Below are positions 8,898 to 64,000 of a stretch of DNA of 64,000 bases, one piece after another. The stretch covers positions 124,001 through 188,000 of the forward strand of contig NZ_JABFDF010000004.1 of the NCBI RefSeq assembly GCF_013403985.1, written 5' to 3'. The position numbers were made by a program, and so were the translations under genes. Under the pieces are notes generated by a model that did no database searches, was not told where the DNA came from, and worked only from the letters and a program-made list of their open reading frames with translations. The stretch is from Winogradskyella ludwigii. Its GTDB lineage: Bacteria; Bacteroidota; Bacteroidia; Flavobacteriales; Flavobacteriaceae. The first letter of the stretch is position 1, and every line of letters starts with the position of its first letter.

Positions 8898-9959
8898 ATG
8901 AAAATACATAATTTTAGTGCAGGTCCATGCGTATTACCAAAATCAGTAATGGAGCAAGCAGCAGCAGCAGTTTTAAACTTTGATGATGGGTTATCTCTTT
9001 TAGAAATCTCACATCGTAGTAAGCCATTTGTAGATGTAATGGAAAATGCAAGATCCTTAGCCTTAGAATTACTAGGATTAGAAGGAAAAGGTTATAAAGC
9101 CTTATTCCTTCAAGGTGGCGCAAGCACTCAGTTTTTAATGGTAGCTTTAAATCTTTTAGAAAAAAGAGCTGGTTACTTAAACTCGGGAACTTGGGCAGAT
9201 AAAGCTATTAAAGAAGGTAAAATCTACGATGACATTTATGAAGTTGGTTCTTCAAAAAGTGCTAATTACAATTATATTCCAAAAGGTTACGATATCCCTG
9301 AAGATTACGATTATTTTCATTGTACTTCTAACAACACTATTTTTGGAACTCAAATGAAAAGTTTCCCAAAAACATCGATTCCAACGGTTTGCGATATGAG
9401 TAGTGATATTTTTTCACGTCAGTTAGATTTTTCTCAATTTGATTTAATCTACGCTGGAGCTCAAAAAAACATGGGACCTGCAGGAACAACTTTAGTTGTG
9501 ATTAAAGAAGATATTTTAGGGAAAGTATCTCGTAAAATCCCTTCTATGATGGATTACAAAACGCACATTAGCAAAGGAAGTATGTTTAATACGCCTCCTG
9601 TGTTTGCGGTTTACGTATCTATGTTAACTATGGAATGGTTAAAAAACTTAGGTGGTATAAAAGCTATCGAAGAAATCAATGAAAAGAAAGCGAGTTTAAT
9701 TTATTCTGAAATAGATTTAAACCCATTATTTAAAGGTTACGCAGCAAAAGAAGATCGTTCTATAATGAATGCTACATTCACATTAGAAAACGAAAATCTA
9801 AAAGAAACTTTTGATGCTATGTGTACAGAAGCTGGTATTAATGGTATTAACGGTCACAGAAGTGTTGGTGGTTATAGAGCATCTATGTATAATGCGTTGT
9901 CTTTAGATAGTGTAAAAGCATTGGTTGAAATCATGAGCGAATTAGAAAGCAAAGCATAA
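8898..9959 (+). CDS. serC: 3-phosphoserine/phosphohydroxythreonine transaminase
   Basis: The 353-residue protein starts MKIHNFSAGPCVLP, the typical SerC opening, and carries the PLP-binding lysine in YAGAQKNMGPAG. Phosphate-binding residues appear in LQGGASTQF and the C-terminal GHRSVGGYRASMYNA. It transaminates 3-phosphohydroxypyruvate with glutamate to phosphoserine in serine biosynthesis, and may also act in pyridoxal phosphate synthesis. The serA-like dehydrogenase follows in the same direction after 130 bases, completing the first two pathway steps. Confidence 0.97.
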   Translation: MKIHNFSAGPCVLPKSVMEQAAAAVLNFDDGLSLLEISHRSKPFVDVMENARSLALELLGLEGKGYKALFLQGGASTQFLMVALNLLEKRAGYLNSGTWADKAIKEGKIYDDIYEVGSSKSANYNYIPKGYDIPEDYDYFHCTSNNTIFGTQMKSFPKTSIPTVCDMSSDIFSRQLDFSQFDLIYAGAQKNMGPAGTTLVVIKEDILGKVSRKIPSMMDYKTHISKGSMFNTPPVFAVYVSMLTMEWLKNLGGIKAIEEINEKKASLIYSEIDLNPLFKGYAAKEDRSIMNATFTLENENLKETFDAMCTEAGINGINGHRSVGGYRASMYNALSLDSVKALVEIMSELESKA

Positions 9960-10089
9960 TAAAATTTGTAGTAGGTCGTTACCTTTTAAATGGTTCATCA
10001 AAGCCATTACCAACTCCAATTAAAAATAATTATAATTTAAAGATTAACTATTGAAAGATGGTTAATCTTTTAAACTTTAAAAACATATA

Positions 10090-11040
10090 ATGAAAGTATT
10101 AGCAAACGATGGAGTTTCTCAAAGTGGAATTAACGCTTTAGAAGCTGCAGGTTACGAAGTAATTACAACCACAGTAGCACAAGAACAATTAGAAAACTAC
10201 ATTAACGAGAAAGATATTTCTGTGTTATTAGTAAGAAGTGCAACAACAGTAAGAAAAGATTTAATAGACAACTGCCCTAACCTAAAGATTATTGGTCGTG
10301 GTGGAGTTGGCATGGATAATATCGATGTTGAATACGCAAGAAGTAAAGGTTTAAACGTTATTAATACTCCTGCAGCTTCTTCACATTCAGTGGCAGAATT
10401 AGTATTTGGTCATTTTTATGGCTTAGCACGTTTTTTACACAACTCTAATCGTGATATGCCATTAGAAGGTGATGCTAACTTTAAAGGTTTAAAAAAATCT
10501 TACGCAAAAGGTATTGAGTTAAAAGGAAAAACTTTAGGTGTTTTAGGTTTTGGACGTATTGGCCAAGCGACGGCAAAAGTGGCTTTAGGTGCAGGAATGA
10601 AAGTTATTGCTTTCGATCCCTTTTTAGAAAAAGCAGATTTAGAATTGGATTTCTTTGATGGTCAGAAAGTAAATTTTGAAATCAAAACAATTTCTAAAGA
10701 AGAGGTTTTAAAACAATCCGACTTTTTAACACTTCACGTACCAGCACAAAAAGATTACGTTATTGACGAAGCAGAATTCAATTTAATGAAAGATGGTGTA
10801 ATTATCGCAAATGCTGCACGTGGTGGAGTTATAAACGAAATTGCACTTGTAAATGCTATAGAAAGCGGAAAAGTTACAGGAGCTGCATTAGATGTTTTTG
10901 AAAAAGAACCAAAACCAGAAATTCAGTTATTAATGAATTCTGCATTATCATTAACACCACATATTGGTGCTGCAACTAATGAAGCGCAAGACAGAATTGG
11001 AACAGAATTAGCACAACAAATTATATCTATTTTAGGATAA
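10090..11040 (+). CDS. serA: D-2-hydroxyacid dehydrogenase, D-3-phosphoglycerate dehydrogenase type
   Basis: This 316-residue cytosolic enzyme has the NAD motif GVLGFGRIGQATAKVAL near residue 152. The catalytic arginine is in NAARGGVINE and the histidine in LTPHIGAAT. It lacks the C-terminal ACT or ASB regulatory domains of long SerA proteins, so serine feedback through ACT is not expected. Its placement directly after serC makes 3-phosphoglycerate oxidation its likely job. A terminator follows at 11074. Confidence 0.9.
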   Translation: MKVLANDGVSQSGINALEAAGYEVITTTVAQEQLENYINEKDISVLLVRSATTVRKDLIDNCPNLKIIGRGGVGMDNIDVEYARSKGLNVINTPAASSHSVAELVFGHFYGLARFLHNSNRDMPLEGDANFKGLKKSYAKGIELKGKTLGVLGFGRIGQATAKVALGAGMKVIAFDPFLEKADLELDFFDGQKVNFEIKTISKEEVLKQSDFLTLHVPAQKDYVIDEAEFNLMKDGVIIANAARGGVINEIALVNAIESGKVTGAALDVFEKEPKPEIQLLMNSALSLTPHIGAATNEAQDRIGTELAQQIISILG

Positions 11041-13438: not shown

Positions 13439-15835
13439 ATGAAACGATTAATTATTGGTCTAGTTATAGCTATATCCAGCTTTAGCTATGGTCAAAATTG
13501 CACTTACACCTTTTTAAGCGAATTAAAAGATTTTCATGATGGGTCAGCTATCGAATCTGCAACTATCTATCAAAAAGAAAATGATAGCTATGCTTTTTCG
13601 GATTTGGATGGTAAATTCAAAATTGAAAATTTATGTGCAGGAACTTTAACATTAACTATTTCTCATGCCAATTGTGAAACTAAAACAGTGAGTTTTGAAA
13701 TCATTGGTGATACTTTTAAAACCATTTTAATAGAACATCACATTGAGGAACTCATGGAAGTTTCAGTCACAGCACATGTTGATAAAAAGGAAACCAAAAC
13801 AGCCCAAGAAACCGTACTTAAGGAGCTTACTCTAAAAAAGTATTCTGCTTTAAGTATTGGAGATGCGTTGAAGGAGGTTGCTGGAGTTTCTTCTATTAAT
13901 ACGGGGAGTTCTATCGTTAAACCTATGATTAACGGTATGCACAGTAGTAGATTAATTATGTTAAATAATAATGTAAGACTACAAGACCAAGATTGGGGAA
14001 TTGAGCATGCACCTAACATTGATGTTAATGCAGCATCTCAAATCTCTGTTATAAAAGGTGCTGGAGCACTCGCCTATGGAGGTGATGCCATAGGAGGAGT
14101 TGTTGTTGTAAATCCCGCTCGTGTATTTTTAAAAGATACATTATTTGGAAAAACAACATTGAGTGGTCAATCTAATGGTAGAGGCTATTCGGCTAATACA
14201 AAATTAAGTAAGTACACTAAAAAAGGTTGGTTTGCATCTGTACAAGCGTCACTAAAACAAAATGGTGATTTTGAAACTCCAGATTATGTATTAACCAATA
14301 CTGGATCTAATTCTAAAGGTTTTACTTTTCGTGGTGGAAAGCAAAATTTTGAGTCTGGATTTGAAGTTTTTTATAGTTATCTCAATAATGAAATAGGTAT
14401 TCTTAAAGCTTCTCATATTGGTAACATTGAAGATTTAGTAAGCGCTATCAATAGTTTAGAACCTTTAGTAATAGAAGATTTTAGTTATGATATAAACGCA
14501 CCTAAACAAGATGTAACGCATCAACTTGCTAAGGTCATGTATTACAAACGTTTTAATAATTTTGGAAAAGTAAATTTGCAATACGATTACCAAAATAATC
14601 AACGTTTTGAATATGATATTCGTGTAGGCGATGATAGAGATAAAGCCGCTTTAGATCTCAAGCTTCAAACCCATACCCTATCTTCAGATATTGTGCTAGA
14701 TGCCTTTTCTGACTATAAATTGAAGTTTGGAATTATGGGCAGATATCAAAATAATTTTGCCAATCCAGATACTGGTGTAAGACGCTTAATTCCGGATTAT
14801 GACAAGTATGATTTTGGTATTTATGCTACAGCAGAACATAATTTAAATTCTAAAATGACTTTAGATTTTGGTTTGCGTTATGATTTCAATCGTATTGATG
14901 CTAAGAAATTTTATTTTACATCACGTTGGGAAGAACGTGGTTATGATGAAGATTTTTCGGATCTTATTATTGATGATTTAGGAACACAATTACTAGTAAA
15001 CCCTGTGTTTGATTATCATAATTTTTCTGTTTCTGCAGGATTTAACTATCAACTTAATGAGCATAATAGTTTTATCGGAAACTATAGCTTATCTAGTAGA
15101 CCACCAAATCCTTCAGAATTATTTAGTGATGGCTTACACCACTCTGCCGCAAGAATAGAGCTGGGTGATTTAAATTTAACTAAAGAAACTTCTAATAGAG
15201 TTTCTGCAAGTTATAACTATAATTCAACTCAATTTAACTTAACAGCAGAAGCTTTTTATAATCACATTAATGATTATATGTATATAGAACCAACAGGTAT
15301 AGAGCAAACCATAAGAGGTGCTTTTCCTGTTTGGGAATATTTACAAACTAATGCCGAGTTATACGGTATCGATTTAAGTGCAAACTATAATTATAATGCG
15401 CATTTTAATTTTTCAAATAAATCTTCTTACACCGTAGGAAATGATATTGAAAATGATAGACCGCTTATAAATATACCTGCTTTTAATACTCGAAACAGTA
15501 TAACTTACACTAATGATTGGAAACAATTTTCAGCGTCATTGACAAGTGATTGGACTTTTGAACAAACCAGATATCCAGATAATAACTTTGAAACGTACAT
15601 TGCAGCTATAGACGAAACAGTTTTAGTGGATGTAAGTACACCTCCAAGTGCTTATCAATTGTTAAACTTTTATTCTGAAGTTACCTTAGAAACTTCAGCT
15701 AAAACCAATCTAAATATTGCTCTTAGCGTGAACAATTTATTAGACACTAACTACAGAGCTTACTTAAACCGCCTTCGTTATTTTGCTGATGACATGGGAA
15801 GAAATATAATGTTACAATTACAATATAACTATTAA
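13439..15835 (+). CDS. TonB-dependent outer-membrane receptor
   Basis: The 798-residue protein has a signal peptide ending near SFSYGQ (residue 19). A carboxypeptidase-like beta-sandwich follows (residues about 28-100), then a plug domain containing SALSIGDALKEVAGVSSIN and SQISVIKGAGALAYGGDAIGG. The rest is a long beta-barrel ending in an aromatic-terminated strand (MLQLQYNY). It imports a substrate across the outer membrane with TonB energy. The preceding His-rich peptide and following lipoprotein point to a metal ion or metal complex, not a glycan; no SusD partner is present. Confidence 0.92.
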   Translation: MKRLIIGLVIAISSFSYGQNCTYTFLSELKDFHDGSAIESATIYQKENDSYAFSDLDGKFKIENLCAGTLTLTISHANCETKTVSFEIIGDTFKTILIEHHIEELMEVSVTAHVDKKETKTAQETVLKELTLKKYSALSIGDALKEVAGVSSINTGSSIVKPMINGMHSSRLIMLNNNVRLQDQDWGIEHAPNIDVNAASQISVIKGAGALAYGGDAIGGVVVVNPARVFLKDTLFGKTTLSGQSNGRGYSANTKLSKYTKKGWFASVQASLKQNGDFETPDYVLTNTGSNSKGFTFRGGKQNFESGFEVFYSYLNNEIGILKASHIGNIEDLVSAINSLEPLVIEDFSYDINAPKQDVTHQLAKVMYYKRFNNFGKVNLQYDYQNNQRFEYDIRVGDDRDKAALDLKLQTHTLSSDIVLDAFSDYKLKFGIMGRYQNNFANPDTGVRRLIPDYDKYDFGIYATAEHNLNSKMTLDFGLRYDFNRIDAKKFYFTSRWEERGYDEDFSDLIIDDLGTQLLVNPVFDYHNFSVSAGFNYQLNEHNSFIGNYSLSSRPPNPSELFSDGLHHSAARIELGDLNLTKETSNRVSASYNYNSTQFNLTAEAFYNHINDYMYIEPTGIEQTIRGAFPVWEYLQTNAELYGIDLSANYNYNAHFNFSNKSSYTVGNDIENDRPLINIPAFNTRNSITYTNDWKQFSASLTSDWTFEQTRYPDNNFETYIAAIDETVLVDVSTPPSAYQLLNFYSEVTLETSAKTNLNIALSVNNLLDTNYRAYLNRLRYFADDMGRNIMLQLQYNY

Positions 15836-16966: not shown

Positions 16967-19408
16967 ATGAACACACGTTCTATATGTCTTTTGCTTAGCT
17001 TGCTTTGCTCTATTACCATTGCCTTTTCTCAAGATAAAAAACCTTTAAATATTCAGCGTACAGAACTTGCTCCAAAAATAGATGGTATCCTAGATGATAC
17101 TATTTGGAAAAATGCAGAGATTGCCACAGGTTTTGTTTCTAACAGACCAGAAATTGGTAAAGTAGCACCACAGGATCAGCGTACAGAAGTAAAAATGACT
17201 TATGATGATAAGGCCATTTACGTTTCCGCTTATCTTTATGACGATCCTACCAAAATCATGAAACAACTGACTAGTAGAGATAATTTTGGACAAACAGATT
17301 ATTTTATTTTAGTTTTAAACCCTAATAATGATGCCCAAAACGACACTGCCTTTTATGTTTTTAGTTCTGGTCAGCAAGCAGATGCAATTCAAAACCCAAC
17401 TATTGGAGAAGATTTTGGGTGGAATGCTGTTTGGGACAGTGCTGTTAAAATAATGGACGATGGTTGGGTTGTAGAAATGAAAATTCCTTATAGAACGTTG
17501 CGTTTCGCAGATCAAGAAGAACCAACTTGGGGAGTTCAATTTCATAGAGAATTTAGACGATCTAGATCCCGTTACACTTGGAATCCTATAGATCCAACGC
17601 AAGGTTATTCTGGATTATATCATGCTGAAGTTAAAGGTCTAAAAAATATAAAACCTCCTGTAAGGCTTAACCTCTACCCTTTTACTACAGGAATAGTTAA
17701 TGATTATGACGGAAAAACAGATACAGATTTAAAATTTGGACTGGATGTTAAATATGGACTTACCGATAATTTTACATTAGATGCCACTTTAGTTCCAGAT
17801 TTTAGTCAAGCCGGATTTGATAATGTGGTTTTAAACCTGGGGCCTTTTGAACAAACTTTCTCAGAACAACGCCAATTTTTCACGGAAGGAGTCGATTTAT
17901 TTTCAAAAGGAGGCTTGTTTTTTTCTAGACGTATTGGAAACAGACCAAGTGGTAATGTGAGTCTCAATGAAAATGAAGACGTAAATATTCCAAATGAGGT
18001 TAAAGTATTAAATGCACTTAAAGTTTCAGGAAGAACCAAAAGCGGATTAGGTGTTGGTTTCTTTAATGCCATCACAGAAAAAACAACTGCTAAAATAAAA
18101 AATACAATCACTGGAGACCAACGCACTGAGATAGTAGAACCGTTTACTAATTATAATATATTAGTTGTAGACCAACAATTTAATGGTAATTCTTCTGTGA
18201 GTTTAATTAATACTAATGTGCTTAGAGAAGGTAATTTTAGAGATGCCAATGCTACTGCTTTAGTCGCTAACATAATTAACAAGCGTAATACGTATAGTGT
18301 TGCTACAGACTTAAAAATGAGTAATGTAAATTACCAAAACACAACTAACGAAACAGGATTTAGTAGCTACCTAAAACTAGCCAAAATTCATGGAAATTTA
18401 CGTTATAGTATAGAGCACAATTTTGCAGATACAAATTTTAACATCAATGATTTAGGGCTATTATTAAGAAATAACTACAACAATTTTAGCTCGGACATTT
18501 CTTATGAAACCTTTGAACCTAGTGGTAATTTAAACAGCTACAGAATCAATGCTTTCTTTAATTATAACAGATTAGTAGAACCTAGTGTGTTTTCGCAAAC
18601 CAATTTTGGTGCGACATATAGAGCTACTACAAAACAATTGGACGGTTTTGGTTTTAGATTAAATATAGAACCAGGAGAACAAAAAGATTACTTTGAATCT
18701 AGAGATGGTAGACCATTTATTTATGAAAATGCTGTAAGCACAGGTGGTTGGATTTCTTCTAATTACAACCGAAAATTTGCATTAGATTTTAGTGTGAATG
18801 CAGATGCTTTATTTGAAAACGGAAGAGACTTATTTTCTTATGATATTAACGTTGAACCTCGTGTACGTCTTAATGATAAATTATTACTGATCTATCAATT
18901 ATACTATGATTTCACAAATGGTGGCCGAGGTTATGCCACAGAAGTAGACAACCAAGCTGTTTTTGGAGAGCGCAACAGACAAGTTGTAACCAATAGCTTA
19001 TCTGCGAACTACGCCTTTAACCCTTATAATTCTATAGCCTTAAGTTTTAGACATTATTGGGATACTGTAAATTATGACAATAATTTATTTACATTATTAG
19101 ATTCGGGACGTTTAACAACAGACTCTGGTTATACTACAGAAACTATTGAGGACGATCCTGATATTAATTTTAGCACATGGAATATTGATTTAAGTTACTC
19201 ATGGCAATTTGCTCCAGGCAGTTTCTTAACAGCATTGTATAGAAATCAATTATTTAATCTTAACGAAATGGCAGAAAATAACTATTCGCAAAGTTTAGAT
19301 AACTTATTTGATCAACCTAGTCAGCATACATTTTCTGTACGTGTTCAGTATTTTATTGACTTTAATGGTATTAAATCTCTCTTTGGAAGCAATAAAACGA
19401 CCTCTTAA
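16967..19408 (+). CDS. DUF5916 outer-membrane protein with CBM9-like N-terminal domain
   Basis: The 813-residue protein has a signal peptide ending at AFSQ (residue 22). A domain like carbohydrate-binding module 9 follows (IDGILDDTIWKNAE at residues about 37-50, and GWVVEMKIPYRTLRF). The rest is a long DUF5916 region of amphipathic strands, probably an outer-membrane barrel, with the signature QTFSEQRQFFTEGVDLF near residue 300. Proteins with this layout are widespread in Bacteroidota; their substrate and role are not established. A LolD-like ATPase gene follows after 40 bases but has no obvious functional link. Confidence 0.9.
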   Translation: MNTRSICLLLSLLCSITIAFSQDKKPLNIQRTELAPKIDGILDDTIWKNAEIATGFVSNRPEIGKVAPQDQRTEVKMTYDDKAIYVSAYLYDDPTKIMKQLTSRDNFGQTDYFILVLNPNNDAQNDTAFYVFSSGQQADAIQNPTIGEDFGWNAVWDSAVKIMDDGWVVEMKIPYRTLRFADQEEPTWGVQFHREFRRSRSRYTWNPIDPTQGYSGLYHAEVKGLKNIKPPVRLNLYPFTTGIVNDYDGKTDTDLKFGLDVKYGLTDNFTLDATLVPDFSQAGFDNVVLNLGPFEQTFSEQRQFFTEGVDLFSKGGLFFSRRIGNRPSGNVSLNENEDVNIPNEVKVLNALKVSGRTKSGLGVGFFNAITEKTTAKIKNTITGDQRTEIVEPFTNYNILVVDQQFNGNSSVSLINTNVLREGNFRDANATALVANIINKRNTYSVATDLKMSNVNYQNTTNETGFSSYLKLAKIHGNLRYSIEHNFADTNFNINDLGLLLRNNYNNFSSDISYETFEPSGNLNSYRINAFFNYNRLVEPSVFSQTNFGATYRATTKQLDGFGFRLNIEPGEQKDYFESRDGRPFIYENAVSTGGWISSNYNRKFALDFSVNADALFENGRDLFSYDINVEPRVRLNDKLLLIYQLYYDFTNGGRGYATEVDNQAVFGERNRQVVTNSLSANYAFNPYNSIALSFRHYWDTVNYDNNLFTLLDSGRLTTDSGYTTETIEDDPDINFSTWNIDLSYSWQFAPGSFLTALYRNQLFNLNEMAENNYSQSLDNLFDQPSQHTFSVRVQYFIDFNGIKSLFGSNKTTS

Positions 19409-58861: not shown

Positions 58862-59170
58862 ATGATACAAGAATTAGAACAAGATAATCTACAAGAGATT
58901 ATCAATAGTAACGATACAGTGATCGTACAATATTCAGCGACGTGGTGTGGAAATTGTAGAATAATGAAACCTAAGTTCAAGAAATTAGCAACAGAGCACG
59001 AAGGCGCAACCTTTGTAATTGCTGATGCTGAAAAATTTCCTGAAAGTAGAAAATTAGCAACCGTTGATAATTTACCAACCTTTGCAACCTTCAAAAACGG
59101 TGAATTTAAAGGTCAGGTACAAACGAATAAGTTCGATGTGTTAAAAGAATTGGTGGACGACGCCTTATAA
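58862..59170 (+). CDS. Thioredoxin-family protein with CGNC active site
   Basis: The 102-residue protein has a thioredoxin fold with active site ATWCGNCRIMKP (CGNC in place of CGPC, near residues 28-31) and the cis-proline in DNLPTFATFKNGE. It is soluble and cytosolic. It lies between a 2-Cys peroxiredoxin and a DUF6952 gene on the same strand, so its likely job is to reduce that peroxiredoxin. The change of proline to asparagine in the active site would be expected to alter its redox potential; that is inference. Confidence 0.92.
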   Translation: MIQELEQDNLQEIINSNDTVIVQYSATWCGNCRIMKPKFKKLATEHEGATFVIADAEKFPESRKLATVDNLPTFATFKNGEFKGQVQTNKFDVLKELVDDAL

Positions 59171-59178
59171 CAAAAGTC

Positions 59179-59351
59179 TGTCAGGTTGAGCGCAGTCGAA
59201 ACCTATTTATCCAGTTGAGCACAGTCGAAACAAGGGGTGTCAGGTTGAGCGCAGTCGAAACCTCTTTATAACGCAAAACTATTTGGTTGAGCATTAACGA
59301 GATCAAAATATATGTTGAGCGAAGATAGCTTACAACGTAAGTCGAAACCTC
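59179..59351 (+). repeat. Repeat cluster A: TTGAGCGCAGTCGAAAC units
   Basis: Units at 59179-59204 and 59238-59263 start TGTCAGGTTGAGCGCAGTCG. A variant lies at 59212-59234 (CAGTTGAGCACAGTCGAAAC). A longer unit at 59285-59351 has TTGAGCGAAG split from TCGAAACCTC by an insertion (ATAGCTTACAACGTAAG). The cluster fills the space before the DUF6952 gene and is closely related to cluster B near 60.9 kb. Confidence 0.85.
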
Positions 59352-59396
59352 AAACAATACCCAATTTGCCCTTTATAACACAAAACACCATTAGCA

Positions 59397-59654
59397 ATGA
59401 AACTACCTGTAATAAAACACCTAACGCAATTCATTGAAGACAATGACGAAGATTACATCATTGAAACCATTGAAACTTTAGAAGCGTTAACTGAAGTACC
59501 ATCACTTAAAGATGAAGAACTAGACGTGATTGGAGAATTAATCTCTAATATGTATGGTGCCATTGAAGTGAATAAAATGATTAAAGAAGGCACGCCTAAA
59601 AAAGAAGCCGTTAACGGATTTATGAAACGCGTCTTAGGATCTATTGATAAATAG
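59397..59654 (+). CDS. DUF6952 family protein
   Basis: The 85-residue acidic, helical protein begins MKLPVIKHLTQFIEDNDEDYI and continues with TLEALTEVPSLKDEELDVIGELISNMYGAIEVNKMI. There is no signal or membrane segment. Proteins of this family occur beside peroxiredoxin and thioredoxin genes in flavobacteria, so a redox-linked role is plausible, but none is known. The repeat cluster separates it from the thioredoxin gene by 226 bases. A truncated copy of its 5' end lies at 61149. Confidence 0.85.
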   Translation: MKLPVIKHLTQFIEDNDEDYIIETIETLEALTEVPSLKDEELDVIGELISNMYGAIEVNKMIKEGTPKKEAVNGFMKRVLGSIDK

Positions 59655-60778: not shown

Positions 60779-60858
60779 GATAAGTTAACCGCAATCCACC
60801 AATAGTTTTTATGGAGGAACGTCTAGTGGTAAGCAACCTAAACCTTATATAACAAAAA

Positions 60859-61104
60859 TGTCTGGTTGAGCGCAGTCGAAACCTCTATAACAAGTTGAAC
60901 ACTGTCTAAACAAGGGATGTCAGGTTGAGCGCAGTCGAAACCTCTATAACAGATTGAACACAGTCGAAACCTATTTGTCTGGTTGAGCATTAACGAGAGC
61001 AAAATATATGTTGAACGAAGATAGCTTACAACGTAAGTCGAAACCTCTATAACAAGTTGAACACAATCAAACCGAGTTGTCAGGTTGAGCGCAGTCGAAA
61101 CCTC
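60859..61104 (+). repeat. Repeat cluster B: duplicated TTGAGCGCAGTCGAAAC units
   Basis: Units at 60859-60885, 60918-60944 and 61078-61104 have the GGTTGAGCGCAGTCGAAACC core. Diverged units lie at 60892-60915 and 60951-60973. The long unit at 60981-61047 carries the same ATAGCTTACAACGTAAG insertion as cluster A. It continues at 61105 into sequence matching the leader and first codons of the DUF6952 gene, so the whole block appears to be a copy of 59.2-59.46 kb. Confidence 0.85.
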
Positions 61105-61148
61105 AATCAATACCCAATTGCCCTTAACAAACAAAACACCACTAGCAC

Positions 61149-61274
61149 ATGAAACTACCCGTAATAAAACACCTAAAGCAATTCATAGAAGACAAAGACT
61201 ATAACAATAAACCTATTCAAACCACGTTGCACAAACAAAATGATTGTTGCGATTCTTACAGTTTCATAGGCTAA
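61149..61274 (+). pseudogene. Truncated copy of the DUF6952 gene
   Basis: An ATG at 61149 opens MKLPVIKHLKQFIEDKD, nearly identical to the first 17 codons of the intact gene at 59397. It then diverges into unrelated residues and stops at 61272-61274 after 41 codons. The upstream 44 bases also match the leader of the intact gene. It is a 5' fragment carried along with repeat cluster B. Confidence 0.8.
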
Positions 61275-61893: not shown

Positions 61894-61955
61894 CATTTGT
61901 TATTTTTCAACACGGCATTACGGCAGACCTTTACGCAAACAAAAAAACAATAGTG

Positions 61956-62957
61956 ATGAGTAAAGACTTAGCCTTAGTAACCGGTGGCAATGGCCATTTA
62001 GCAAACAATCTAATCCGTTTGTTGCTATCCAAAAACCAAAACGTAAGAACAACCGTTAGAGATGTAAATAACACCGCACCGTTTAAAGGTCTAGATGTCG
62101 AGGTGGTACAAGCAGATCTTCTAGACAAAGCAGCCCTAAGAAAAGCATGTAAAGACGTCACGCACATCTATGCCGTGGCCGCCAACTTTAGCATGTGGGC
62201 AAAAGACCCAAAAACGGAGATTTACGACAACAACCTAAAAGGCACCCAAAACCTGTTCGATAGCGCCAAAGCATGTGGCATTAAAAACATCGTCTATGTA
62301 AGTTCTGTAGCCGCTTTAGACTTTAACACCTTACCAGCCAACGTAGATAATGGGTATAACACAGACCGAAGAAACTGGTATTACAATTCTAAAAACGATT
62401 CTGATAAACTGGCTTTAGCCTTGGGTGAAACATACAACATCAGAACCGTTCTCATTTTACCATCGGCAATGATTGGCAGCCAGGCCCACAAACTCAGTTA
62501 TTCTAACAACTTAGTCTATCAAATTTTAAAAGGCGAAATCCCTGTAGACACCAACGTCACCTTAAACTGGGTAGATGTAAAAGATGTGGCTTTTGGCGCG
62601 TACCAAGCCATGCTAAAAGGCAAAGACCAAGAACGCTATATACTCTCTAACCCAACACACACCACATTACAAGACAGTGTAAACATAGCGGCTAAGTTGT
62701 ATCCAGAATTAAAACTAAAAACCCCTAAAAAAGTACCCAAATGCCTATTGTACACAGTGGCTGGTCTTATGGAGTTTAGCAGTAAACTCACAGGAAAAGA
62801 ACCCTTATTGCAACGGCATTATTTAGATATGTTTTATGGACTAAAACAAGATTATGATATTAGTAAATCTAAAGAAGAACTCAACTTTAATCCTAAACCA
62901 TCAAAACAAGCTTTAGAAGAGGCACTGACCTATTTAAAAACGGACTGGAAAATGTAG
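61956..62957 (+). CDS. NAD-dependent epimerase/dehydratase-like (extended SDR)
   Basis: I start at ATG 61956 (a GTG lies one codon earlier), giving 333 residues. The nucleotide-binding motif is ALVTGGNGHLANNLIRLLLSKN (residues about 6-27). The catalytic YxxxK-like site is YYNSKNDSDK, and VSSVAALDF supplies the serine. It resembles dihydroflavonol-4-reductase-type extended SDRs that reduce ketones or aldehydes with NAD(P)H. The substrate is unknown. It is probably cotranscribed with, or controlled by, the preceding Crp-like gene and ends at a terminator. Confidence 0.87.
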   Translation: MSKDLALVTGGNGHLANNLIRLLLSKNQNVRTTVRDVNNTAPFKGLDVEVVQADLLDKAALRKACKDVTHIYAVAANFSMWAKDPKTEIYDNNLKGTQNLFDSAKACGIKNIVYVSSVAALDFNTLPANVDNGYNTDRRNWYYNSKNDSDKLALALGETYNIRTVLILPSAMIGSQAHKLSYSNNLVYQILKGEIPVDTNVTLNWVDVKDVAFGAYQAMLKGKDQERYILSNPTHTTLQDSVNIAAKLYPELKLKTPKKVPKCLLYTVAGLMEFSSKLTGKEPLLQRHYLDMFYGLKQDYDISKSKEELNFNPKPSKQALEEALTYLKTDWKM

Positions 62958-63125: not shown

Positions 63126-63281
63126 TAGATTTTCTGACAAATAACGATTATGTTTGTTGGATGTCTATTTAATGTATTAATGTTATGATTAACTGACTAT
63201 ATTTAGGGGATATGAGTCATAATAGTTATTATATAACGAGTTAGGCAAAATAAAAACAGAGCTTCATTACATAAAAAATAT

Positions 63282-64000
63282 ATGAAAAGAATAACAGAAG
63301 AGAAATTAGCGGAAATAAAAAATAATGCATTAAAACCAACAATTTATAATGGTAATTTTCCGCTCAATGAAATATCTGATAGGGAATTTGAAGCTCTTTG
63401 TTATTTGCTTTTTAAAGAGCGTATAAAATATGATGATATTGAGCTGTCTGGTAAGTTTGACAAAATAGACTTAATGTCTGGAATTGGCGAAAAAGGGTTT
63501 GACTCAACGTTATATTTAAATAATAAAATTGTTGGTTTAATTCAATGTAAAAAATATAAAACTAGATTAACTAAACCTCTTGTAATTAAAGAATTTTTAA
63601 AATTTGTCCTAAATGCAATATTGAACCCTGATTTATTGCCAGATAAAAATAACTTCACATATTATATTATCTCTAGTTCTGGGTTTGCAAATACCACTAT
63701 TGCGTTATTATCTAATTTTAATAAAAAAATAGAAAAAGAAGATGTAAAAAAAATATGTTGTGAAATTATAAGTCAAAATAAGGGCTTAAATACAATTGAT
63801 ATTGAAGTTGAATTAAGTTCAGTTTATGATATTATCAAATTAATAAAAGTTAAAAAAGTAATACCTGAAGACTTAAATCTTCAACTTAAAGAATACTCAA
63901 TAATTGCTAAGAGTTTCTTTAAAGTTTACACTGCAACAGACAATACTCTTATTGAAAAAGTAATTACTAAATATCTTGAACCTTTAATAAATAGTATGTC
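63282..64000 (+). CDS. Mrr-like restriction-endonuclease-domain protein (partial, C-terminus outside window)
   Basis: The frame opens at ATG 63282 and stays open for 239 codons to the window edge. The visible part begins with a helical stretch (NEISDREFEALCYLLFKER, residues 29-47). GEKGFDSTLYLNN follows, with an aspartate at residue 74, then KIVGLIQCKKYKTRL (Q88, K90). Acidic residue E36, D74 and QxK fit the PD-(D/E)xK pattern of Mrr-type nucleases. YYIISSSGFANTTIALL then resembles the following region of such proteins. Local DNA is more AT-rich than neighbours. Proteins with this N-terminus often continue into a large NTPase in antiphage systems, but that part is not visible. Confidence 0.7.
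   Translation, partial: MKRITEEKLAEIKNNALKPTIYNGNFPLNEISDREFEALCYLLFKERIKYDDIELSGKFDKIDLMSGIGEKGFDSTLYLNNKIVGLIQCKKYKTRLTKPLVIKEFLKFVLNAILNPDLLPDKNNFTYYIISSSGFANTTIALLSNFNKKIEKEDVKKICCEIISQNKGLNTIDIEVELSSVYDIIKLIKVKKVIPEDLNLQLKEYSIIAKSFFKVYTATDNTLIEKVITKYLEPLINSM

What the first reader, a model, noticed from the sequence alone, without database searches (positions are those of the whole stretch)
63282..64000. Start of a probable defence gene at the window edge
The truncated protein has a PD-(D/E)xK pattern (E36, D74, Q88-x-K90) in an Mrr-like N-terminus, in a region more AT-rich than its surroundings. N-terminal Mrr-like nucleases are known effector domains of large STAND/Avs-type antiphage NTPases. 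The visible 239 residues do not reach an NTPase domain, so the identity is open.
Basis: partly seen in the sequence, partly recalled or inferred. Interest (0 to 1): 0.62.

Follow-up and report, generated by a model that had tools for sequence, protein, structure and literature searches.

The report
Nuclease-armed bacterial NLR-like defence gene
The gene cut by the window edge encodes an 861-residue bacterial relative of animal NLR immune receptors, with a DNA-cutting domain at one end and a fast-changing probable sensor at the other; it sits where related bacteria carry other antiviral genes, so it is most likely a suicide-type virus defence.

Summary
The visible 239 residues form an Mrr/LmuA-type PD-(D/E)xK domain; the Glu is E37, not E36. 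Read on in the contig, the gene ends at 861 aa. Behind the nuclease lie a NACHT NTPase (above Pfam's cut-off) and a C-terminal domain remotely like SNaCT5. A model of the 67%-identical homologue matches NLRC4 and NLRP3 across the core. So it is a bacterial NLR-related (bNACHT-like) protein rather than an Avs. Its closest nuclease-free relatives are short SNaCT5-type NACHT proteins. The six nuclease-fused proteins found form one group (support 100/99), as one effector gain would give. The C-terminus changes much faster than the rest. The nuclease-NACHT gene was not found in 98 other genomes searched. In six same-genus genomes with the left flank it is missing at this site; four hold Lamassu, ABC-3C or other defence-type genes instead, a fifth has one further on. 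Best reading: a one-gene antiphage NLR whose nuclease destroys DNA in the infected cell. Defence, trigger and cleavage are inferred. Nuclease-NACHT and SNaCT-NACHT proteins are each known; this combination I did not find in the papers held, but the founding bNACHT paper was not readable.

The parts
63282..64000 (+). 5' part of the nuclease-NACHT gene (residues 1-239 of 861); it continues to window-equivalent 65867, i.e. G000:C24:187282-189867 (stop included), read as L003:7282-9867
63282..63926 (+). PD-(D/E)xK (Mrr/LmuA/Cap4-type) nuclease domain, residues 1-215
   Evidence: PADLOC LmuA E 3.6e-9 over residues 28-292; Pfam Mrr_cat E 0.15, below cut-off; AlphaFold2 model pLDDT 90.5; LmuA 9hr5 Z 8.7, Avs4 8dgf Z 8.0
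63390..63392 (+). E37, predicted catalytic Glu
   Evidence: invariant
63501..63503 (+). D74, predicted metal-binding Asp (GxD)
   Evidence: invariant
63543..63551 (+). Q88-C89-K90, QxK motif
   Evidence: Q88, C89 and K90 invariant
63927..64000 (+). start of the helical linker (residues 216 on) that aligns with the N-terminal residues of nuclease-free relatives; the NACHT NTPase (residues 323-457) and the C-terminal domain (about 653-861) lie beyond the window
   Evidence: BLAST starts, Pfam NACHT E 6.7e-7, C-terminal profile tests
63142..63256 (.). left boundary of the variable site: identity to four close relatives ends here, just before the gene
   Evidence: L003 7142, 7242, 7244, 7256; window = L003 + 56000
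61953..62957 (+). left neighbour (334 aa, NAD-dependent epimerase-like by reading only), part of the shared flank used to find the site in relatives

Best explanation
A single-gene antiphage immune receptor of the bacterial NLR-related (bNACHT) kind. The C-terminal domain senses a phage-linked signal (inferred). The NACHT NTPase then switches from a closed to an open state and oligomerises (inferred from the family). This brings the N-terminal PD-(D/E)xK nuclease domains together so that they cut DNA, host DNA included, and the infected cell stops before phage is released (inferred from bNACHT25/32 and LmuA). Shown here: the three-part architecture, conserved active-site and NTPase motifs, a grouping that fits one origin of the fusion, fast change of the C-terminus, absence at this site in relatives, and location at a site where relatives hold other defence-type genes.
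For: Full ORF of 861 aa. NACHT above Pfam cut-off; NACHT matched in 40 of 40 members of alignment A2, this protein included, at E<=0.1. The model of the 67%-identical L011 (pLDDT 85.2) aligns with NLRC4 4kxf, Z 28.0 over 433 residues, and NLRP3 7vtp, Z 27.1 over 390. Nuclease. FFFDGYDE at 390-397 and WAHKTLQEYF at 608-617 present; H610 is invariant in A2 (that it is the switch His of the winged helix is recalled). Fused proteins on one side of one branch, 6 of 6, support 100/99. Site. Precedent: bNACHT25/32 need their nuclease for defence and degrade DNA on infection (PMC12169576: abstract, introduction, one results section and passages seen).
Against: No experiment; no sequence of a tested bNACHT was in hand to place it on their tree. 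Pfam finds no SNaCT domain in this protein itself. The position of the P-loop's usual first Gly (recalled consensus) is Asp here (DHGGMGKST), as in all six fused proteins. Mrr_cat is below cut-off, and fold matches of the nuclease part are middling (best Z 9.4, to a protein of unknown function, 1y88; Foldseek none at E<=0.001). None of the six genes tested downstream in its own genome matches PADLOC (at E<=1, at E<=0.01).
Confidence: 0.82

Rival explanations
1. An anti-plasmid or general anti-mobile-element receptor: same machine, but the trigger is plasmid or other foreign DNA rather than phage.
For: Lamassu, which shares the nuclease family, also acts on plasmids (passages of PMC10586767); two relatives hold Lamassu-type genes at the same site (the LmuA and LmuB of one of the two were scanned).
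Against: The NACHT-type precedents read about are antiphage (PMC12169576).
Confidence: 0.1
2. An Avs-type receptor (Avs3/Avs4 class) that binds a phage protein such as portal or terminase directly.
For: The nuclease model aligns with Avs4 8dgf (Z 8.0, 132 residues) and Avs3 8dgc (Z 6.4); the same nuclease family sits on 1493-1522 aa frames in three other genomes, of which the one tested has an AAA/STAND-like domain.
Against: No Avs model among PADLOC matches at E<=1; the NTPase scores as NACHT, the protein has 861 aa, and the homologue's model has a short mixed alpha/beta C-terminus rather than a long repeat sensor.
Confidence: 0.05
3. A prophage- or element-derived gene without a present defence role, or decaying.
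For: Nuclease-free relatives lie on 16 viral contigs; 174 plasmid records match some part of the protein.
Against: Frame intact; catalytic and NTPase residues invariant; pN 0.11-0.23 against pS 0.61-0.72 in nuclease and NACHT NTPase among the three closest proteins (synonymous change is close to saturation).
Confidence: 0.03

Closest known systems
bNACHT25 and bNACHT32 (clade 6 bNACHT, tested in E. coli)
   Same: N-terminal PD-(D/E)xK DNase, central NACHT, C-terminal sensor (PMC12169576)
   Different: Those have an NCH1 C-terminal domain and bNACHT25 needs DnaJ; here the C-terminus is SNaCT5-like and no NCH1 match appeared. Direct sequence comparison was not possible.
Clade 14 bNACHTs (such as bNACHT02, 11, 12) with SNaCT domains
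   Same: NACHT core followed by a short C-terminal domain; 17 of 40 members of A2 match Pfam SNaCT5, including 3 of the 6 nuclease-fused ones
   Different: That clade is described as lacking readily discernible effector domains (PMC12169576); this one has a nuclease in front.
LmuA, nuclease effector of Lamassu
   Same: Same nuclease family: PADLOC LmuA matches residues 28-292; LmuA structures among the best fold matches
   Different: LmuA works with the SMC-like LmuB; here the nuclease is fused to its own NTPase switch.
Avs4 (nuclease-STAND)
   Same: An N-terminal nuclease-like domain and an NTPase in one protein; fold match of the nuclease part Z 8.0
   Different: Nearly twice the length (8dgf chain 1534 aa); this one's NTPase scores as NACHT and its C-terminus is short.

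Membership tests
bNACHT (bacterial NLR-related proteins) | Central NACHT module | tested here: met
   Pfam NACHT 29.7 bits against cut-off 26.7; homologue model aligns with NLRC4/NLRP3, Z 27-28
bNACHT (bacterial NLR-related proteins) | N-terminal effector and C-terminal sensor around the NACHT | tested here: met
   Architecture only: nuclease model, separate C-terminal domain. Sensing and cutting were not tested
bNACHT (bacterial NLR-related proteins) | Protects against phage | not testable with these tools
   -
bNACHT clade 14 | SNaCT C-terminal domain | tested here: inconclusive
   No Pfam SNaCT match in P0001, L011 or L012 at E<=1; fused relatives L013-L015 match SNaCT5 (E 1e-9 to 1.5e-16). 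Profile comparison 99.1% with the conserved start, 93.9% over 96 columns without it, reversed control 0.5%; a plain HMM without the start does not list P0001 and gives L011 E 5.7
bNACHT clade 14 | No readily discernible effector domain (as described in PMC12169576) | tested here: not met
   A nuclease domain is present
bNACHT clade 14 | Placement in one clade with bNACHT02/11/12 | not tested
bNACHT clade 6 (bNACHT25/32) | N-terminal PD-(D/E)xK DNase | tested here: met
   By fold and motif class, not by comparison with bNACHT25 itself
bNACHT clade 6 (bNACHT25/32) | NCH1 C-terminal domain | tested here: inconclusive
   No NCH1 among Pfam matches at E<=1; I did not check that the library holds an NCH1 model
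Lamassu (LmuA) | Nuclease of the LmuA family | tested here: met
   PDLC03852 E 3.6e-9, residues 28-292; the LmuA of L065 scores E 1.9e-109 with the same model
Lamassu (LmuA) | Adjacent SMC-like LmuB | tested here: not met
   No SMC-like frame next to the gene by reading; 0 of 6 downstream genes tested match PADLOC
Avs3/Avs4 | Matches an Avs protein model over its length | tested here: inconclusive
   No Avs model at E<=1 in PADLOC; only the nuclease end was seen to match by fold

The most novel reading that the evidence does not exclude
A Bacteroidota sub-clade of SNaCT-type bNACHTs, otherwise without a recognisable effector, has gained an LmuA-type nuclease in one event, placed directly in front of what is the N-terminus of its nuclease-free relatives. 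If so, the short proteins probably use a separate or hidden effector that works through the same linker of about 100 residues, and this fusion shows what that output is: DNA destruction.
Probability: 0.35. Interest if true: 0.6.

Novelty: new variant of a known kind. Interest (0 to 1): 0.42.

Why it matters
Tested SNaCT-type bNACHTs (bNACHT02 and 12) protect against phage, yet no effector is apparent in their clade (PMC12169576), so how they stop infection is open. A natural fusion of a similar core to a recognisable nuclease gives a readable output (DNA breakage) with which the trigger can be sought. It also shows one nuclease family on a NACHT receptor, on ~1500-aa proteins, on ~490-aa prophage-type proteins and, more distantly, on Lamassu, and it marks a chromosomal site where related species hold different defence genes.

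Tried and rejected
Tried without result: phmmer of P0001 against solved structures (0 matches at E<=1); hmmsearch with the six fused proteins (one match, E 0.93, taken as chance); tRNA genes as an insertion mark (none in the window or the next 32 kb); a partner nuclease beside the short relatives (a profile of 10 nuclease rows against frames of 80 aa or more in loci L011-L051 found only the five fused proteins at E<=1); retrieval of named bNACHTs through plasmid hits (six regions read, none carries an accession listed).

Considered and rejected: a Lamassu gene (no LmuB beside it); a restriction enzyme alone (it is fused to a NACHT NTPase); a gene ending soon after the edge; a core gene of the genus.

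Results against the reading: the six genes tested downstream in its own genome have no PADLOC match, so no multi-gene island was seen there. Of six relatives with the left flank, one (L068) has only a weak PDC-S18 match (E 2e-6) among the five genes tested, and in another (L067) two other genes precede the KAP/PifA-like gene. In the four positive relatives, small genes without a defence name also lie in the stretch. I ran no control at random sites for how often defence genes turn up. The C-terminal HMM without its conserved start does not list P0001 and gives L011 only E 5.7. The tree is unrooted: a fusion that was older and lost in the others is less simple but not strictly excluded.

Full report
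What was given.

The observation. The frame is real and equals residues 1-239 of the complete protein. The Glu is E37 rather than E36; D74 and Q88-x-K90 are right. All four residues are invariant in six fused homologues and in ten nuclease-domain rows. The AT-rich claim holds.

The rest of the gene. The window is G000:C24:124001-188000. The contig continues and the gene ends at 861 aa (L003:7282-9867). Pfam finds NACHT at 323-457 above its cut-off and Mrr_cat at 29-106 below its cut-off. PADLOC finds LmuA at 28-292, E 3.6e-9. NCBIfam gives a weak match to EruA, a NACHT antiphage protein (22.8 bits, cut-off 1000).

Structure. A model of the visible part from ten sequences has mean pLDDT 90.5. 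Foldseek found no match at E<=0.001. The second look gave first a protein of unknown function (1y88, Z 9.4), then MspJI (Z 8.7), LmuA 9hr5 (Z 8.7, 151 residues, 3.6 A) and, lower, Avs4 8dgf (Z 8.0, 132 residues) and Cap4 (Z about 7). These scores lie near the level that unrelated folds can reach, and RNA polymerase subunits and other proteins are also listed; but many rows are nucleases of this superfamily and the catalytic residues fit. For the whole chain I modelled the 67%-identical homologue L011 (pLDDT 85.2). It aligns with NLRC4 (Z 28.0, 433 residues) and NLRP3 (Z 27.1, 390 residues) from about residue 240 on. Confidence dips at 211-220, which marks the joint between nuclease and NACHT part.

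Relatives and the fusion. A scan of the species genomes gave 25 loci, of viral contigs 16; both look for exact peptide patterns first and miss relatives. Five loci (L011-L015, 42-67% identical) share the whole nuclease-NACHT layout. The others match from residue 178-267 or later. Eleven different ones (L017, L018, L021-L023, L036-L038, L040, L041, L045) align from residue 196-223 of ours, at their own residues 4-29. So the nuclease lies directly in front of what is the N-terminus of the short relatives. The nuclease profile hits 6 of 40 members of A2 (E<=1e-99); the next best is E 0.028. On a tree of the NACHT core (40 rows, unrooted) the six fused proteins are one side of a branch with support 100/99, so one gain is enough.

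C-terminus. 17 of 40 members match Pfam SNaCT5, 5 SNaCT9 and 4 SNaCT13 at E<=0.1; among the fused ones L013, L014 and L015 match SNaCT5, while P0001, L011 and L012 do not. Profile comparison links the C-terminus of P0001/L011/L012 with SNaCT5-type ones at 99.1%, and at 93.9% over 96 columns without the conserved first part, with a reversed control at 0.5%; a plain HMM without that part does not list P0001. I call it SNaCT5-like, remote. It changes much faster than the rest: identity to L011 and L012 is 41% and 34% for residues 660-861 against 78% and 75% for 240-690; pN is 0.39-0.43 against 0.11-0.23 elsewhere. Synonymous change is near saturation, so this shows relaxed or diversifying change, not which. 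It is what a sensor in an arms race would show.

Genomic site. Of 99 genomes searched (own included), 5 have any match: own plus 4, with partial matches only; none of the 98 others shows nuclease plus NACHT (84 of the 99 are at least 90% complete and at most 5% contaminated). Of 60 genus genomes (own included), six others share most of the left flank and three more have fragment matches that I did not follow. In the four at more than 90% identity the match ends at L003 7142-7256, 26-140 bases before the start codon. Apart from short repeat matches it resumes in G005 and G031 at 9959 and 10147, just behind the gene, in G002 at 14975 and in G055 at 18674. The DNA in between: L065 (G002) has LmuA (E 1.9e-109) and LmuB (E 1e-143); L066 (G031) has near-identical genes by reading (not scanned) and, in front, a DUF6602/NucC-like nuclease (scanned); L064 (G055) has ABC-3C genes (CTD9, MC5) and an LmuB-like protein; L063 (G005) has PDC-M48B (metallo-beta-lactamase fold) and PDC-S49. 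L067 (G032) has a KAP/PifA-like NTPase after two other genes. L068 (G003) has only a weak PDC-S18 match. The six genes tested downstream in the own genome have no PADLOC match. I read this as a variable site that takes defence genes; no random-site control was run. I noticed no integrase or transposase among the frames read around it (by eye, no profile search), so how genes move in is unknown.

The nuclease module elsewhere. A profile of the nuclease domain (A3) matched 3 of 395 genomes drawn from the phylum and 3 of 397 from the family, own included in both. Of the four others, three are frames of 1493-1522 aa (one, G851, with a stop inside) and one is a weak match in a 362-aa frame. The one read in full (G436, 1518 aa) has an AAA/STAND-like domain. 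Six viral contigs carry the nuclease, five in frames of 488-506 aa and one in a 235-aa frame; the one tested (L072) has no Pfam match. In plasmids, 0 of 174 matching records cover 80% of the protein; of 60 listed, one E. coli record has the nuclease end only.

Literature. PMC12169576 (abstract, introduction, one results section, accession list and passages) states that bNACHT25/32 (clade 6) have an N-terminal PD-(D/E)xK DNase that is needed for defence, and that clade 14 has SNaCT domains without readily discernible effectors. PMC10586767 and PMC10952713 were seen as passages only. Searches that could have shown a nuclease-SNaCT NACHT (listings only) showed none by title or abstract, but the founding bNACHT paper is not held, so prior description is not excluded.

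Verdict. A nuclease-armed, NLR-related, probably single-gene defence receptor. It is ordinary in kind and a variant in its combination. Defence, trigger and DNA cleavage are inference.

Noticed in passing
L080:8534-8998 and 8950-10518 (genome G011, same genus): A SNaCT-type NACHT relative is split into two overlapping frames of 154 and 522 aa just after its P-loop, so it looks frame-broken or is an assembly error.
   Followed up: partly
L003 9886-10044, 14892-15050, 10535-10614, 13307-13386 and others: Dispersed repeats of about 60-160 bases (78-89% alike), mostly between genes, downstream of the gene; right-hand junctions of the variable site in G005 (L003 9959) and G002 (14975) fall inside two copies, so they may serve for recombination.
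   Followed up: partly
L072-L077 (viral contigs), L084:5001-6467 (E. coli plasmid record, WP_000723924.1): The same nuclease family (30-35% identical) forms the N-terminus of ~490-aa proteins in prophage-like DNA with an unknown C-terminal half (no Pfam match for the one tested): perhaps another defence gene.
   Followed up: partly
L078:5766-10322 (G436), L082 (G851), L083 (G516): Frames of about 1500 aa carry this nuclease in other genomes of the family; the G436 one has an AAA/STAND-like domain, the G851 one a stop inside.
   Followed up: partly
L036, L037, L039, L040, L042 (viral contigs): SNaCT5-type NACHT genes lie directly in front of a run of genes of 226-260, 409-450 and 473-506 aa, possibly phage packaging genes: perhaps a fixed defence slot in these prophages.
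   Followed up: no
L012:6923-7876: A SIR2-like gene (Pfam SIR2_2, E 6.4e-6) lies directly upstream of the fused homologue in Flammeovirga.
   Followed up: no
window 60848-61199 and 59166-59447: Blocks of short repeats (72% alike over 355 bases) in largely non-coding DNA.
   Followed up: no
L066:2473-5799 (G031): In front of the Lamassu-type genes, three further genes: a 415-aa protein without PADLOC or Pfam match, a DUF6602/NucC-like nuclease and a 326-aa protein not tested; perhaps an undescribed defence cassette.
   Followed up: partly
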